DNA of 48,985 nucleotides from Oscillospiraceae bacterium (GTDB taxonomy: Bacteria; Bacillota; Clostridia; Oscillospirales; Oscillospiraceae): NCBI GenBank assembly GCA_902784305.1, contig CACZUK010000004.1:1-48985 (forward strand), read 5' to 3'. Within the stretch, counting starts at the first letter, position 1, and the number at the start of each line of letters is the position of its first letter. This document shows positions 13,598 through 47,665 of the stretch, piece after piece. The notes under the pieces are model-generated. The model did no database searches. It had not been told where the DNA came from and was given only the letters and a program-made list of their open reading frames with translations. The position numbers were made by a program, and so were the translations under genes.

Positions 13598-13670
13598 TTG
13601 TAGGGGCGGCCATTGGCCGCCCGGCAAAGATTGAGAGAATCCCGGGCGCGCAATGCACGCCCCTACACAA
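13598..13670. repeat. Palindromic intergenic repeat (TGTAGGGGC ... GCCCCTACA)
   Basis: Terminal inverted repeats TGTAGGGGC and GCCCCTACA enclose two inner blocks, GGCGGCCATTGGCCGCC and GGGCGCGCAATGCACGCCC, each partly palindromic. This architecture, with 'CCATTGG' and 'GCAATGC' centres, looks like a REP-type dispersed element of clostridial genomes. It lies between the divergent alaA and cobalamin operon promoters. The rest of this 648-base gap holds the two promoters and the leader described separately. Confidence 0.7.
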
Positions 13671-42873: not shown

Positions 42874-44295
42874 ATGTCAATCGTCGAAATCCTGGATAAA
42901 ATTGACGGGATACTCTACTATCCCATTCTGATTGTGATTCTGTCCGCCGCGGGCATCTATTTCACTCTGCGCACCCGGGCGGTGCAGCTGCGCATGTTCC
43001 CGGAGGCCTGTAAGCAGATTCTGGAGCCGCCTCCCGGCGGGGACAAGGAGGCGGTCAGCTCCTTCCAGGCGCTGATGGTGTCCACCGCGTCCCGGGTGGG
43101 CACGGGCAACATCGTGGGCGTGTCCACAGCCATCTGTCTGGGCGGCCCCGGCGCGGTGTTCTGGATGTGGGTGCTGGCGATTCTGGGCGGCGCGTCCGCC
43201 TTTGTGGAGAGCACCCTGGCCCAGGTCTACAAGCGCCGGGACGAGGAGGGCGGCTACTACGGCGGTCCGGCCTACTACATCGAGCAGGCCCTGCACGCGC
43301 CGCTGATTTCCAAGCTGTTCTGCATCTTTTTGATTCTCACCTACGCCTTTGGCTTCAATTTGCTGTGTTCCTACAACCTCCAGACCACGTTTCAGGCCTA
43401 TTCCTTCTACAATCCACAGCTGACCCCGGTGCTCATCGGCGCGGTGCTGGCGATTCTGGTGGGCTACTGCCTCTTCGGCGGCGGCAAGCGCATTGTGGAC
43501 ATCACCTCGGTGATCGTGCCCTTCATGGGCGTGTCCTACGTCATCATTGCGCTGATCGTTCTGGTGGTCAACGCGAAGAATCTGCCCGCCATGTTCGGCA
43601 TGATTTTCGCCGACGCCTTTGACTTCAAGTCCATTCTGGGCGGCATCAGCGGCTCGTGCATGATCTACGGCATCAAGCGGGGCCTGTACTCCAACGAGGC
43701 GGGCGTGGGCAGCGCGCCCAACGCCGCCGCCGCCGCGGACGTGTCCCACCCGGTGAAGCAGGGTCTGGTGCAGGCGCTGAGCGTGTACATCGACACGATT
43801 CTGCTGTGCACCGCCACGGCGCTGATGTGCCTGTCCACCGGCGTGCCCTTCAACGAGGAGGTGTCCGGCGCGCCCTACGTTCAGAACGCGATTTCCTCCG
43901 TTTTTGGACCCATCGGGCCGCTGTTCATCACCTGCGCCATGATTCTGTTCGCCTTCACCACCCTGCTGGGCAATCTGTTCTACACGGTCAACGCGCTGAA
44001 CTACCTGAACAACAAGCAGGAGCCGTCTGAGCCGTTCATGCGCATTTACTACGTGATTTGCGCCATTATCATCTTCGTCGGCGCGATTCTGCCCGCCACG
44101 GCGGTCTGGGCGCTGGCGGACATCACCATGGGCGGCATGGCGTTTTTCAACTTGCCCTCCTGCATTGCCCTGAGCGGCGTGGCCATTGCGGCGCTGAAGG
44201 ACTATGAGAAGCAGAAGGCGGCGGGGAAGAACCCGGTGTTCAAGGCCCGCGACATCGGCATGGACGACTCCGAGCTGGACTGCTGGGCGGACTGA
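42874..44295 (+). CDS. Sodium:alanine (AGCS family) symporter
   Basis: A 473-residue integral membrane protein with about eleven hydrophobic segments. It shows the AGCS blocks 'STASRVGTGNIVGVSTAI' and 'GGPGAVFWMWVLAILGGAS', plus 'YYGGPAYYIE' and 'SNEAGVGSAPNAAAAADVSHPVKQG' pieces. It imports alanine, glycine or a related amino acid with Na+. AGAGAGG precedes the ATG. Its TGA stop is the triloop of the first hairpin of the downstream 132-bp-type repeat. Confidence 0.95.
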   Translation: MSIVEILDKIDGILYYPILIVILSAAGIYFTLRTRAVQLRMFPEACKQILEPPPGGDKEAVSSFQALMVSTASRVGTGNIVGVSTAICLGGPGAVFWMWVLAILGGASAFVESTLAQVYKRRDEEGGYYGGPAYYIEQALHAPLISKLFCIFLILTYAFGFNLLCSYNLQTTFQAYSFYNPQLTPVLIGAVLAILVGYCLFGGGKRIVDITSVIVPFMGVSYVIIALIVLVVNAKNLPAMFGMIFADAFDFKSILGGISGSCMIYGIKRGLYSNEAGVGSAPNAAAAADVSHPVKQGLVQALSVYIDTILLCTATALMCLSTGVPFNEEVSGAPYVQNAISSVFGPIGPLFITCAMILFAFTTLLGNLFYTVNALNYLNNKQEPSEPFMRIYYVICAIIIFVGAILPATAVWALADITMGGMAFFNLPSCIALSGVAIAALKDYEKQKAAGKNPVFKARDIGMDDSELDCWAD

Positions 44296-44540
44296 GTCCG
44301 CTGGCAAGCTCCCTACGACGGATAGCAGTCACCGAACTCCCGGCCACGAACGCATGAAATAAACCAACCATTGAGAGGCCGGGTCCTGGAGCCGCCGGAC
44401 TGCGTCCGGAGGCAAGCTCCCTTCGAGCGATAGAGGAAACCGGACTCCCGGCCACCACTGACAGTGTGAAACCGGAAGAAGGAAGGGCCGGGTCCTGGAG
44501 CCGAAACGTTGCAGTCAGTCGGAGGCACAAAACTGCGCCC
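44287..44540 (+). repeat. Two copies of the ~132-bp structured repeat after the symporter gene
   Basis: Unit 1 (44289-44396) is a 108-bp form lacking the last segment; unit 2 (44397-about 44530) is full; a truncated third start follows (to about 44540). Each has GGCAAGCTCCCTTCG-like, GATA, ACTCCCGGCC, a variable loop, GGCCGGGTCCTGGAGCC and CAGTCGGAGGCA blocks. Head hairpins are GCGGAC-TGA-GTCCGC (44287-44301) and CCGGAC-TGC-GTCCGG (44395-44409). Beyond these the 418-base gap holds only the terminator and promoter listed separately. Confidence 0.88.
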
Positions 44541-44578
44541 CGGACTGTGTCTCTAATGCCCCAACCCCTTCCAATCTG

Positions 44579-44619
44579 CGCCCCCAACCGGGAGAACCAC
44601 CGGCTGGGGGCGATTTTTG
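44579..44619 (+). terminator. Terminator after the symporter gene and its repeats
   Basis: CGCCCCCAACCGG pairs with CCGGCTGGGGGCG (one mismatch), followed by ATTTTTGTT. Confidence 0.88.
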
Positions 44620-44648
44620 TTGTGATGCGGGCCTTTTGGTGGTATACT
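44620..44648 (+). promoter_or_regulatory. Predicted promoter of the conserved membrane protein gene
   Basis: TTGTGA (44620-44625) and TATACT (44643-44648) are exactly 17 nt apart; the start codon is about 60 nt beyond the predicted start site. Confidence 0.65.
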
Positions 44649-44713
44649 GACCCCGAACCCCTGAATCAAGGCAGCCGGACAGAGTGCAAAGCTGCCCAAA
44701 GGAGGCGAAAGGC

Positions 44714-45556
44714 GTGAAAGACATTCGGCGGGAGGACCTCAAAGAGAACGTCCGGCGGGAGCTGACCCGCGGCATCCAGCGCACCCGGGCGCTGCGCTTC
44801 TATCTGTTCAAATTTGTGCTGCGATTGAGCCTGTTTCTCGCGGTTTTGGGTATGTATGTGCTGGACCGGCCGCTGCTGCTGGAGGTGGTGCAGACCTTCA
44901 GCTGGCGGCGCTTCACGGTGGTGCATCTGGCGTGGCTGGTGTTCATGACCATCATGCTGCTGCACATCATCCCGACAAACTCCATCACCATGGCCTGGAA
45001 GAAGGCCCGGGGCGAGGTGTTCCGCGAGGTGCCCGGCTACGACCGCCTGCGGCTGCTGGAGCAGACCCAGCTCCAGAATCAGCGCGCCTGGCAGGTGATG
45101 CTGGTGTGGCTGTGCTTCAACGCCATTTTTGGCTTTCTGTACCTTTGGGGCGTTATCGGGGAGGGGGAGCTGCTGCTGCTGACGATGTTTTACTTCGTCT
45201 GCGACTACATCTGCATCCTGTTTTTCTGTCCGTTCCAGACCTTTTTGATGAAGAACAAGTGCTGTATCAACTGCCGGATTTACGACTGGGGACACTTTAT
45301 GATGTTCACTCCCATGCTCTTCATCCGCAACTTTTACAGCTGGAGCCTGTTTTTTATGGCGCTGGTGGTGCTCATCCACTGGGAGCTGGAGTACGCGAAG
45401 CACCCGGAGCGCTTCTGGGAGGGCTCCAATGTGACGCTGCAATGCCGCAGCTGCCGGGAGCGCACCTGCCAAATCAAGCGCCAGGCTGCGCCTGGAGGCA
45501 AGCTCCCTTCGACTGTCAGTGATAATCGAACTCCCGGCCACGAACAAAGGAAATAG
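44714..45556 (+). CDS. Conserved membrane protein of unknown function with C-terminal Cys motif
   Basis: A 280-residue protein with a basic N-terminal segment (about 1-35) and about five hydrophobic segments. Loops carry 'KNKCCINCRIYDWGHFMMF' and 'ELEYAKHPERFWEGSN', and the tail has LQCRSCRERTCQIK, with Cys residues that could bind metal or form an iron-sulfur or zinc site. I know similar sequences from other Clostridia without a function. GTG 44714 has AGGAGG 8 nt upstream. The last 24 or so residues (from RQAAPGGK) are encoded by the first 132-bp repeat unit, so the native C-terminus has probably been replaced. Confidence 0.75.
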   Translation: MKDIRREDLKENVRRELTRGIQRTRALRFYLFKFVLRLSLFLAVLGMYVLDRPLLLEVVQTFSWRRFTVVHLAWLVFMTIMLLHIIPTNSITMAWKKARGEVFREVPGYDRLRLLEQTQLQNQRAWQVMLVWLCFNAIFGFLYLWGVIGEGELLLLTMFYFVCDYICILFFCPFQTFLMKNKCCINCRIYDWGHFMMFTPMLFIRNFYSWSLFFMALVVLIHWELEYAKHPERFWEGSNVTLQCRSCRERTCQIKRQAAPGGKLPSTVSDNRTPGHEQRK

Positions 45557-45800
45557 TCCATCCTTTGAGAGGCCGGGTCCTGGAGCCGGACCGTTACAGA
45601 TAGTCGGAGGCACTAGGCTGCGCCTGGAGGCAAGCTCCCTTCGGACGATATTGATTATCGAACTCCCGGCCCCGAACAGAAAGAATAGTCCAACTTTGGT
45701 GAGGCCGGGTCCTGGAGCCGGACCGTTGCAGCCAGTCGGAAGAGCGAGGCTGCGCCGGTCGGCAATCTCCCTCTGAATGATAGTGAGAACCAGAATGCGC
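45481..45800 (+). repeat. Tandem ~132-bp structured repeat array (two full units plus a partial one)
   Basis: Units begin at 45484, 45616 and 45748, an exact 132-bp period. The third decays after about 50 bp. Conserved blocks are CAAGCTCCCTTCG, TCGAACTCCCGGCC, GAGGCCGGGTCCTGGAGCC and GGACCGTT-CAG-CAGTCGG. Head hairpins are CCAGGC-TGC-GCCTGG and CTAGGC-TGC-GCCTGG. Inner stems CCCGGCC/GGCCGGG and GCTCC/GGAGC recur in each copy. The loop between is variable (for example CAAAGGA/TCCTTTG in one copy). Confidence 0.9.
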
Positions 45801-45836
45801 CGCCCAATCAGGAACCCTGAACGCTCAAACAGCTGC

Positions 45837-45866
45837 GCCGGGGAGGGAAATTGACCCTCCCCGGCA
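45837..45866 (+). terminator. Strong GC-rich hairpin after the repeat array
   Basis: GCCGGGGAGGG pairs perfectly with CCCTCCCCGGC around AAATTGA. The following ACTTTGCTG is only weakly T-rich, so its efficiency as a terminator is uncertain. Confidence 0.6.
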
Positions 45867-46025: not shown

Positions 46026-46050
46026 GAAACAGGAGACCTACTCCTGTTTG
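46026..46050 (-). terminator. Hairpin over the recombinase stop codon
   Basis: AAACAGGAG and CTCCTGTTT form a perfect 9-bp stem whose loop contains the recombinase stop codon. No T-tract follows on the minus strand, so it could equally be an attachment-site or RNA-stability hairpin. Confidence 0.4.
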
Positions 46051-47618
46051 GGTTCCTCAGAGATGTTCATTCTTCCTCTGGTCAACGCATCGAACCGGGG
46101 ATAGAGGTCAATCTCCACCGGACCGCCGCGCTCTCTCCGATATTCCATCCGCTTGACGATGGCCTTCAGTGCCTCGTTGCGTTCCTGGACACTCATCTGG
46201 TCGTAGCTGGAGAGAAGCCGCTCTGCCTGCGGAATCATGTTCTTTCGGGAAAAATCGGTCTTCTCCATTCGTTCCATCTCATTCTTCAGAGCCGCAGTCT
46301 GAGCGTCCAGGGACTCCATTGAGCCCTCCAGCCTGGAGCGTCTGCTTTTAAACTCCTCCAGCGTGTAGATGCCCTGCTCGACGAAATTGTAGGCCCGCTC
46401 CATTTGCTGCTCCAGTTTTTCCCGCTCCGCCTGAAGCTCCTCCAGCTTTGCGCGCAGTTGGGCGAGGTCCTCCCCAAAGCCGGTGACGTTGACCTTGATC
46501 TGATAGCCTTCAAACCAGATTTTGACGGCGTTCAGAATCGCTTCCTCCACCTTTTGACAGCCTGCGGTGGCGTTGTGACAATTTCGCATATTGACGCACC
46601 GGAACCGGGGCCTTGCGTTTTGCCTGAGAGAGCCGACGGTTCGCCCGACCCGCTTGCCGCAGACGGCGCAGAAGAGGAGTCCGGCGAAGGGGTTTTGCAG
46701 TTCGTGGGTAGCGTCTACCTTCGGCTTCCCGATCCGCTCCTGCCGGATTCTCTGGGCCAGCAGAAAGGTCTCCTCTGAAATCAGCGCCGGGTGGAGGCCG
46801 TCGTAGAGCGGGTAGTCCTCGGGATTCTTCTTCCGCTTGATTCGTTTTACCACGGCTCCGTCCTCGATGGACTTGATTTGTTTGCTCCACCCGCGTCGGA
46901 TTTTGCCCATGTAGACAGGATTGGTGACAATGTTGCTGATGGTGGAGTAAGACCAGAGGTCGCCGTGCCGCGTGGGAATCCTCTTGTCATTGAGATAGTT
47001 GGCGATTCTTTTCGTTCCGTTGTACTGCAGGAAGAGTTCAAAAATCTCCTTCACCACCGGGGCTTCCTGCTCGTCCGGCTCCAGCGTGTAGCCCTTTTCA
47101 TTCTCCAGCTTTTTGCGCCGATAGCCGTAGGGCGGGATACTGCTGATGTATTTCCCCTCGGAGGCGGAGCTGTTGCGGCCCCGGATGAGTCGGCGGTTGA
47201 TGGTTTTGTACTCACGGCGGCTCATAAAAAGGCCGAATTCAAAGTATTCCTCGTCAAACTCGTTGCTGGGGTCGTAGGTCTTGCTTGGCGTGATAATTTT
47301 GGTGCCGGAGAACTGAAAGACCTGACTGATGTAGGCCTGGTCTGCTCCGTTGCCTCTGGCCAGCCGCTCCACATCCACCACCAGCACGCCGGTATAGAGG
47401 CCCGCACTGACCTCCTCCAGCATCTTCTGGATTTCCGGTCGTGCGGCGATGGACTCACCGGAAACCACCTCGTAGTAGGTTTTGGCGATGTGGTATCCCC
47501 GCTCCGCCGCCAGCTTGTCGAGTATTGCCTCGTGGCGCTTGAGCGTCTCATCGACGGACAGCTCTGCGTAGTCCCGGTCCATCCGGGACTTGCGCAGATA
47601 GATGACGTACTGCTCCAT
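46038..47618 (-). CDS. Large serine recombinase (integrase of a mobile element)
   Basis: A 526-residue site-specific recombinase. The resolvase domain (about 1-150) has the catalytic Ser11 in 'YVIYLRKSRMD', 'VDVERLARG' and 'FGLFMSRREYKTINRRL'. The recombinase domain has 'PPYGYRRKK' and 'WSYSTISNIVTNPVYMG', and a zinc-ribbon follows with 'CAVCGKRV' and later Cys residues, then a long coiled coil (about 400-475). This is the plan of integrases of Tn4451/Tn5397-type elements and phages. ATG 47618 has AAGGAG 7 nt upstream. Codon use and base composition are more AT-rich than in the host genes. Confidence 0.95.
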   Translation of the reverse strand: MEQYVIYLRKSRMDRDYAELSVDETLKRHEAILDKLAAERGYHIAKTYYEVVSGESIAARPEIQKMLEEVSAGLYTGVLVVDVERLARGNGADQAYISQVFQFSGTKIITPSKTYDPSNEFDEEYFEFGLFMSRREYKTINRRLIRGRNSSASEGKYISSIPPYGYRRKKLENEKGYTLEPDEQEAPVVKEIFELFLQYNGTKRIANYLNDKRIPTRHGDLWSYSTISNIVTNPVYMGKIRRGWSKQIKSIEDGAVVKRIKRKKNPEDYPLYDGLHPALISEETFLLAQRIRQERIGKPKVDATHELQNPFAGLLFCAVCGKRVGRTVGSLRQNARPRFRCVNMRNCHNATAGCQKVEEAILNAVKIWFEGYQIKVNVTGFGEDLAQLRAKLEELQAEREKLEQQMERAYNFVEQGIYTLEEFKSRRSRLEGSMESLDAQTAALKNEMERMEKTDFSRKNMIPQAERLLSSYDQMSVQERNEALKAIVKRMEYRRERGGPVEIDLYPRFDALTRGRMNISEEPKQE

Positions 47619-47665
47619 GAAAAAGCTCCTTCCCGTCCTGAATGCTTTCATCTGATTCTAACATA

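What the first reader, a model, noticed from the sequence alone, without database searches (positions are those of the whole stretch)
44287..45800. A ~132-bp tandem repeat with covarying hairpins sits behind two neighbouring genes
Four copies and two partial ones occur in two clusters, one touching the symporter stop codon and one entering the 3' end of the next gene. In the second cluster the period is exactly 132 bp. The head hairpin keeps its structure while its arms change in pairs: GCGGAC/GTCCGC, CCGGAC/GTCCGG, CCAGGC/GCCTGG, always with a TGA or TGC triloop. Inner stems CCCGGCC/GGCCGGG and GCTCC/GGAGC recur, while the loop between them varies. Paired changes imply selection on folded RNA or single-stranded DNA. 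Neither REP, CRISPR nor any riboswitch class I know fits. It could be a new structured RNA or a mobile palindromic element mobilised as single strands.
Basis: seen in the sequence. Interest (0 to 1): 0.82.

Follow-up and report, generated by a model that had tools for sequence, protein, structure and literature searches.

The report
Stop-codon-docked palindromic repeat family
A bacterium carries dozens of short hairpin-forming DNA repeats that often sit exactly at the stop codons of ordinary genes, on the coding strand, which suggests that they act on the ends of messenger RNAs and are not just random junk.

Summary
The repeats are real and form a genome-wide family. The ~108-nt window element ('type A') has 39 matches of full span among 58 model matches in its own genome (35 of the 39 built the model) and none of full span in 31 congeneric genomes; Rfam has no match. 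Covariation is genuine in the head hairpin: three of its six pairs rank 1, 2 and 4 of 5,778 column pairs against simulated nulls. The inner stems are nearly invariant, with one paired change in divergent copies. The head is shared with other bodies.

The main new result is position. In 10 of 43 leading heads the hairpin starts exactly 0 nt after the stop codon of a sense ORF; none of 56 heads lies within 18 nt of an antisense ORF stop. The rule recurs in a second species, 2 of 3. Eight of the ten upstream ORFs match protein families. Apical loops are about 40% identical between loci, the main motifs 89-97%.

Best reading: a lineage-specific, REP-like family of mosaic palindromes acting in the 3' UTR at translation termination or on mRNA ends. 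It is not shown to belong to the GTAG-REP/RAYT kind. Mobility mechanism unknown.

The parts
44286..44393 (+). type A copy 1; head hairpin 44287-44301 (GCGGAC TGA GTCCGC); its triloop is the stop codon of the symporter
   Evidence: E 2.7e-20
44394..44502 (+). type A copy 2, directly abutting copy 1 (spacing 108); head 44395-44409 (CCGGAC TGC GTCCGG)
   Evidence: E 5.3e-20
44503..44539 (+). degenerate tail resembling the unit spacer of cluster 2
   Evidence: family D3
45480..45587 (+). type A copy 3; head 45481-45495 (CCAGGC TGC GCCTGG); its first part is read through as the C-terminal extension QAAPGGKLPS... of the upstream ORF
   Evidence: E 3.4e-21
45612..45719 (+). type A copy 4, 132 nt after copy 3; head 45613-45627 (CTAGGC TGC GCCTGG)
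   Evidence: E 7.7e-20
45744..45816 (+). partial copy 5, 132 nt after copy 4, head degenerate (CGAGGC TGC GCCGGT)
   Evidence: E 0.00115
42874..44295 (+). sodium:alanine symporter (Na_Ala_symp, PF01235); five orthologs read end W-K, W-N or W-D then stop, here the W codon is followed directly by the head
44684..45556 (+). ORF of 290 aa, no Pfam match; one relative (G012) ends about eight residues past the point where copy 3 begins

Best explanation
This is a lineage-specific family of short, mosaic, palindromic repeats of REP type. A shared head hairpin (paired 6-bp arms, triloop TGC, then GGCAA or similar) is joined to one of several bodies, in the window to the type A body. Copies often sit on the coding strand at gene ends, the head starting at the first base after the stop codon or with the stop inside the hairpin, so they would be transcribed as the start of the 3' UTR. 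Most likely (inferred) the head acts as an RNA hairpin docked on the terminating ribosome or on the trimmed mRNA 3' end. It would modulate termination, ribosome recycling or decay of the upstream message, much as E. coli REPs within 15 nt of a stop codon do, with the conserved body as a sequence-specific protein-binding or structural part. Spread between genes is by an unidentified copying process (inferred); local arrays arise by tandem duplication that can copy the end of the gene too (seen in the sequence of L020 and L023). Shown: family, anatomy, head covariation, sense-strand stop docking, conserved motifs with variable loops. Inferred: transcription, function, mobility.
For: Position: 10 of 43 leading heads at exactly 0 nt after the stop of a sense ORF of at least 100 codons, two at -1, two at -4, one at -9; 29 of 43 have such a stop within -60..+120, so about 0.16 at zero would be expected if uniform (my arithmetic); antisense 0 of 56 within 18 nt. 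One further case (L020, 323 codons, TAA|CCAGG) was missed by that script's filter. The rule spans bodies A (L012, L013, L014, L016, L018, L020, L023, L027), B (L083, L087) and C (L086) and a second species, 2 of 3 leading heads, after a malic enzyme and a LUD-domain gene. Of the ten ORFs at zero, eight match a family and seven of these reach the last three profile positions: TrmD, citrate synthase, TelA, threonine ammonia-lyase, L7/L12 (125 of 125), adenosylhomocysteinase, acetylglutamate kinase. Five symporter orthologs end W-x-stop where the window head follows the W codon. Head covariation: 4 of 6 pairs change on both sides; pairs rank 1, 2 and 4 of 5,778 against 60 simulated nulls on 35 copies and again against 100 on 39 copies; 9 perfectly paired arm sequences. 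Motifs against loop between loci: 0.96-0.99 against 0.42 on 35 copies, 0.89-0.97 against 0.40 on 39. Where the stop is not before the head, it can lie inside it: triloop TGA in window copy 1; TAG in the arm with partner CTA in L097-. Precedent: REPs within 15 nt of a stop stall ribosomes (PMC12306157, passages, citing Liang 2015).
Against: No transcript data. 33 of 43 leading heads are not at exact zero and 14 of 43 have no long sense ORF stop in the interval; several are nested in other repeats. The ORFs were not all validated as genes; two of the ten at zero (L016, L086) have no family match. G-U exceeds A-C in the heads only 15 to 8 (one-sided p 0.105), so it is not settled that the sense RNA is the folded strand. 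Three of four window copies do not fold better than shuffles. In the shuffle control, the number of pairs with changes on both sides (4 against 3.1, 147 of 500) and of further pair types is not raised, only the number of such cells and the covariation score. The 35 copies were picked partly by their motifs, so motif identity is biased upward; with the four divergent copies GGCA falls to 0.89. The divergent copies are less tidy: +1, +5, and two without a head. Headless element Q lies 1 nt after a stop in 2 of 11 cases and GTAG REPs supply the stop in 3 of 12, so some stop proximity is shared with other repeats of this genome.
Confidence: 0.5

Rival explanations
1. Purely selfish DNA: the head is the recognition hairpin of an HUH (Y1) or other transposase acting in trans on single strands, bodies are hitch-hikers, and stop-codon docking is target choice or the trace of selection against insertions inside genes. 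Motif conservation reflects what is needed for copying.
For: Dispersed, modular, nested copies; a Y1 gene exists in the genome and GTAG REPs are thought to be mobilised by such enzymes (PMC3733652, passages); a long-lived active lineage could keep motifs while loops drift.
Against: The one Y1 match covers profile positions 40-121 of 121 only and its coding region carries two GTAG-type REPs, not heads. Of the 33 leading heads not at zero, one (L093, at a contig edge) is preceded by a stop-like triplet TAA/TAG/TGA (list), so a simple DNA target motif does not explain docking. Insertion anywhere in a 3' UTR should be harmless, so avoidance alone does not give exact zero.
Confidence: 0.27
2. A new structured RNA with its own activity (ligand-, protein- or RNA-binding, or a trans-acting small RNA), carried in 3' UTRs, for which the stop codon is only a convenient place.
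For: Conserved body motifs with variable loops, covarying head, one paired change in the inner stem, sense orientation at gene ends.
Against: No Rfam match up to E 5; full-span copies in 1 of 32 genomes of the genus; no energy excess in three of the four window copies; pairing of the inner helices is hardly tested by variation; the named upstream genes suggest no common pathway.
Confidence: 0.08
3. Mutational origin of the paired arms: template switching inside the palindrome re-perfects imperfect arms, so paired changes need no selection.
For: Nested and partly duplicated heads show that hairpin-templated events may occur (L011, L012, L080, L089, L092, L096).
Against: Wobble and mismatched intermediates persist (15 G-U and 8 A-C among 34 distinct arm combinations); the core pairs 6-15 and 8-13 and the triloop stay nearly fixed while the outer arms vary; it does not explain docking at stops.
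Confidence: 0.08
4. A site-specific recombination site of attC type: imperfect palindrome after a stop codon, conserved boxes, variable terminal loop.
For: Architecture: conserved ends, variable loop, sense orientation after genes, local arrays.
Against: Named upstream genes are chromosomal housekeeping genes, not typical cassettes; the GTTRRRY/RYYYAAC boxes of attC (recalled) are not among the conserved columns; an integron integrase was not searched for.
Confidence: 0.04

Closest known systems
E. coli REP / BIME sequences close to stop codons
   Same: Dispersed palindromes transcribed in 3' UTRs; a class within 15 nt of the stop stalls ribosomes next to the termination codon (PMC12306157, passages seen, citing Liang 2015, which I did not read)
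   Different: Here docking is often exact, the sequence is unrelated, the body is a longer conserved module, and no effect on translation has been measured
GTAG- and CGTC-tagged REPs, REPINs and RAYTs
   Same: Species-specific, multi-copy hairpins, sometimes supplying a TAG stop to the flanking ORF (PMC3733652, passages); REPINs seen only in a search listing (PMC3116915)
   Different: No GTAG tag outside the hairpin; the genome's Y1 gene goes with a separate GTAG family; no transposase is linked to the head
Yersinia palindromic sequence YPAL, ERIC, RUP, Correia, RPE (small mobile repeats)
   Same: About 100-170 nt repeats, some described as expressed with or fused to upstream genes (PMC2229807, passages)
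   Different: No terminal inverted repeats seen here; head shared by several bodies; zero-distance docking
attC sites of integrons
   Same: Imperfect palindrome behind a stop codon with a variable loop (recalled)
   Different: No attC boxes in the conserved columns; named neighbours are housekeeping genes

Membership tests
REP/REPIN with RAYT | short dispersed palindrome, many copies, mostly extragenic | tested here: met
   56 head-pattern matches in the own genome, 0 of the reversed control; 39 type A matches of full span
REP/REPIN with RAYT | GTAG (or CGTC) tag at the foot of the hairpin | tested here: not met
   of 34 distinct head arm combinations two begin GTAG, and there it is part of the stem; the genome's GTAG REPs are a different sequence
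REP/REPIN with RAYT | cognate Y1 transposase gene flanked by the same repeats | tested here: not met
   one Y1 match, 23.3 bits; the coding region and 350-400 nt on either side that I printed hold GTAG REPs inside the gene and no head; assembly is 97% complete in 168 contigs
Rfam RNA families (4227 models) | covariance-model match | tested here: not met
   0 at gathering over the whole window, 0 up to E 5 over 44250-45850
MITE | terminal inverted repeats | tested here: not met
   no inverted repeat of 14 nt or more joins the two ends of a window element; none seen in the alignment
MITE | target-site duplication on insertion | not testable with these tools
   no closely related empty site: the best congeneric symporter is 62% identical in protein; one genome per species is held
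attC site | conserved boxes GTTRRRY / RYYYAAC | tested here: not met
   absent from the conserved columns of alignment A1 by inspection; the box consensus is recalled
CRISPR array | short direct repeats with unique spacers and cas genes | not tested
   units of 108-139 nt with internal variable loops argue against it; cas genes not searched
stop-proximal REP acting on translation (works like) | hairpin within 15 nt of a stop codon, sense strand | tested here: met
   10 of 43 leading heads at 0 nt, 20 of 43 from -9 to +13
stop-proximal REP acting on translation (works like) | changes ribosome stalling or mRNA decay | not testable with these tools
   needs experiment

The most novel reading that the evidence does not exclude
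A new class of cis-acting 3'-UTR RNA element that is defined by docking on the stop codon itself: the terminating ribosome must melt the head, so the hairpin reports whether a ribosome sits on the stop. Head and conserved body together would make a termination- or recycling-sensing switch that a mobile, modular repeat has distributed over housekeeping genes such as rplL, relA/spoT, trmD and greA. A bold corollary is that the element is copied into place by a process that recognises translated stop codons rather than a DNA motif.
Probability: 0.22. Interest if true: 0.85.

Novelty: new variant of a known kind. Interest (0 to 1): 0.52.

Why it matters
If the docking is functional, it offers a natural set of genes in one genome in which the same kind of hairpin starts at the first base of the 3' UTR, with paired arm variants already made by evolution. 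That would make the open question of how hairpins at the stop codon affect termination, recycling and decay directly testable. If it is target choice, it would be a mobile repeat that finds translated stop codons, for which I know of no enzyme. Either way it is a repeat family without an Rfam entry and with strong positional regularity.

Tried and rejected
Rfam at gathering and at E up to 5: nothing. Scan of genome contigs for an exact pattern of the 3' half of type A: 12 stretches, by title in Streptomyces, Kitasatospora, Glycomyces, Actinomycetales, Rhodospirillales, Elusimicrobia and Caldilineaceae; I read them as chance and did not inspect them (records of the own genome may be left out). 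Viral contigs: none for that pattern and none for one exact head+GGCAA form. Reverse transcriptase (RVT_1) in the own genome: none at E 0.001, so an RT-borne route has no candidate in this 97% complete assembly. Y1 transposase: one gene, linked to GTAG REPs, not to heads. A DNA target motif (stop-like triplet, or T-R-R) left of the head was considered and rejected, because heads not at zero seldom carry it (triplets). A GGCAA/TTGCC pairing (81.1% of cells paired, no compensatory change) and a CGG/CCG middle arm (52.6% of cells paired, two pairs with double changes) were counted and are not part of the model used. G-U against A-C asymmetry was tried to name the folded strand: inconclusive (a first, over-permissive head list was discarded). 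Greedy gene calling by ORF length was misled by antisense ORFs and was not used for counts. Terminators: the consensus scan listed none on the + strand behind the arrays; a hairpin with a T-run at about 44580-44619 is seen by eye only. My first view that the inner stems never covary rested on 35 copies chosen by motif; adding the four further copies that the model found showed one paired change, and the text was mended. A realignment of all 39 (A2) was made but not used for counts. Paper searches for earlier descriptions showed analogues, not this family, in their listings; a passage search in PMC5009743 found nothing. Most subscription papers are not in that library.
Full report
The observation. 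The window holds four full copies of a ~108-nt element (44286-44393, 44394-44502, 45480-45587, 45612-45719), a partial one (45744-45816) and a degenerate tail. Spacing is 132 in the second cluster and 108 in the first. A 15-nt core with up to two mismatches occurs 4 times in the window against 0.28 expected.

A genome-wide family. One copy used as a blastn query finds 31 places in the own genome. I fetched stretches around these and later matches and aligned 35 type A copies from 19 loci, chosen by overall place and by their 3' motifs. A covariance model of these finds 58 matches in the own genome, 39 of them over the full span (the 35 and four more), and none over the full span in the 31 other genomes of the genus; G006 has two head-only matches. 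An exact-pattern scan of the collection of 84,980 species for the 3' half gave 12 stretches, by title in unrelated and mostly GC-rich groups, which I read as chance without inspecting them. Rfam has no match. The taxon of the own genome was not established.

Anatomy (sense strand): a head hairpin of 6 bp, mostly with a TGC triloop; GGCA; CTCCC; a variable middle; CCCGGCC, an apical loop of about 34 columns, GGCCGGG; then TCCTGGAGCC. On the 35 copies the motifs are 96-99% identical between loci (triloop 94%), the middle 58% and the apical loop 42%; within a locus the loop is 72% identical. Because the 35 were partly chosen by motif, I added the four further copies: GGCA 0.89, CTCCC 0.97, stem arms and 3' motif 0.96, triloop 0.91, loop 0.40. 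So arrays grow locally, and the copies are not simply recent: the motifs are held while the loops drift. Two readings remain open, constraint on every copy where it sits, or constraint on an active copying lineage.

Covariation. On the 35 copies 4 of 6 head pairs have changes on both sides and no inner pair has; 43 cells have a double change against 15.9 +- 5.4 in shuffles, while the number of pairs with double changes (4 against 3.1) and of pair types is not raised. Against 60 alignments simulated on the maximum-likelihood tree, head pairs 7-14, 3-18 and 5-16 rank 1, 2 and 4 of 5,778 column pairs, with 0, 0.2 and 1.15 pairs expected at or above their scores over all pairs; rank 3 is a pair of neighbouring loop columns, 95-96. 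With 39 copies and 100 nulls the values are 0.01, 0.53 and 0.92. Scaled to the 17 proposed pairs (my arithmetic) all three are below 0.005. The other three head pairs give no signal; two are nearly fixed. In the inner stem one pair, 61-98, changes from C-G to A-T in three of the four added copies (L158 and both L160 copies), rank 15, 15.6 expected over all pairs, about 0.05 for the 17. The other ten inner pairs show nothing. Across all body types there are 34 distinct arm/loop combinations among 73 head-like matches, 9 arm sequences perfectly paired: CCAGGC, GCGGAC, CCGGAC, GTGGAC, GCGGGC, CCGGGC, GCAGAC, GTAGGC, GCAGGC (a few of the 73 may be chance hairpins).

The head is a shared module. 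The pattern GRCTGCGYCNNNNGGCAR has 56 matches in the own genome and 0 for the reversed control; among the other 58 genomes searched G006 has 5, every other 0-2; in all 17 of 59 genomes have at least one. The matches fall into several bodies: A (the window type), B, C and D/E. The B body is an element of its own, found without head and in both orientations.

Docking at stop codons. For 43 leading heads (the first of each array, with a recognised body) in the held own-genome stretches, I looked for the stop of a sense ORF of at least 100 codons from -60 to +120 nt. It lies at exactly 0 in 10; at -1 in 2, at -4 in 2, and at -9, +3, +6, +9, +10 and +13 in one each; elsewhere in 9; none in 14. On the other strand, none of 56 heads has an ORF stop within 18 nt. 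L020 (TAA directly before CCAGGC, 323 codons) was missed by the filter and is a further case; L093 is a like case at a contig edge with only 61 codons left. The ten include A bodies (L012, L013, L014, L016, L018, L023, L027), B bodies (L083, L087) and a C body (L086), with stops TAA and TGA. At -1 the TAG shares its G with the arm (L019, L085); at -4 the TAG lies in the arm GTAGGC (L084, L097). In G006, four of the five pattern matches were fetched and give three leading heads, two of them at 0, after a malic enzyme (TAA) and a LUD-domain gene (TGA); the fifth match is not a hairpin of this kind. The copies found only by the model are less tidy: +1 behind GpsA, +5, and two without a head.

The upstream genes. 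Of the ten ORFs at zero, eight match a family: TrmD, citrate synthase, TelA, an HtrA-like protease (below the curated cut-off), threonine ammonia-lyase, ribosomal protein L7/L12 (125 of 125), adenosylhomocysteinase and acetylglutamate kinase; seven reach the last three profile positions; L016 and L086 have no match. Elsewhere next to heads are RelA/SpoT, an OppF-like ATPase, SigG, GreA and GpsA. In all, 6 of 20 upstream proteins had no NCBIfam match. In GreA (L091) the profiles end at residues 153-156 and the head begins in codon 156, so the stop seems to have been replaced and the head is read through as QAAPGG.... The window shows both situations. Five symporter orthologs end W-K, W-N or W-D before the stop; here the W codon is followed directly by the head, and the triloop TGA ends the gene. 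The neighbour ORF runs into copy 3; of its two relatives, the G012 one ends about eight residues past the corresponding point, and the G038 locus was read in the wrong frame and says nothing.

Tandem copies. In L023 the unit of 138-139 nt includes the last 18 nt of the gene and its stop, repeated; L020 repeats a gene end likewise. These look like ordinary tandem duplications and explain arrays without transposition.

How it probably works. Shown: family, shared head, paired head arms, conserved body motifs, sense-strand docking. Inferred: transcription as 3' UTR and an effect on termination or decay. The precedent: E. coli REPs within 15 nt of a stop stall ribosomes at the termination codon (PMC12306157, passages), and GTAG REPs often supply a TAG stop to the flanking ORF (PMC3733652, passages). 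In this genome, too, GTAG REPs supply the stop in 3 of 12 cases, so repeats meeting stops is a shared habit here, and the head is the extreme case.

Against. 33 of 43 leading heads are not at zero. Some are nested in other repeats. No strand asymmetry of wobble pairs could be shown (15 G-U, 8 A-C, p 0.105). Three of four window copies do not fold better than shuffles. No empty site, strain comparison or transcript was available.

Novelty. A family, new to Rfam and to the papers I could search, of a known kind (REP-like small palindromic repeats) with an unusual feature, exact docking on stop codons across several bodies and two species. The paper searches did not show this family, but that library lacks most subscription papers.

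Noticed in passing
own genome C65:11646-12128 (L104 1369-1851): A Y1 (RAYT-like) transposase gene whose own coding region contains two GTAG-type REPs in inverted orientation, read in frame as VGATCGRP and GRPQVAPT; the Pfam match starts only at profile position 40.
   Followed up: partly
window 13600-13666: Two GTAGGGGC REPs in inverted orientation about 60 nt apart, a REPIN/BIME-like pair of a repeat family separate from the finding.
   Followed up: no
L086, L089, L091, L092, L097 and others: An independent dispersed palindromic element (TCGCTTCGCCCGTCGGCGGC ... GCCGCCGAGGGAACAAAGTGCCTCGTACAGTAAATTGGTTTCCAT) in both orientations, with variable paired stems by eye, with or without a head.
   Followed up: partly
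window 46038-47651, minus strand: A large serine recombinase (Resolvase, Recombinase, zinc ribbon) directly beyond the second array, perhaps the edge of an integrated element that runs off the contig end.
   Followed up: no
L014, L016, L022: A further short repeat, AATGCACAATGCACA, just downstream of several type A copies.
   Followed up: no
L011, L080, L089, L092, L096: Heads nested in heads: the 5' arm and triloop of an older head kept after the stop or gene end, followed by a complete new head.
   Followed up: partly
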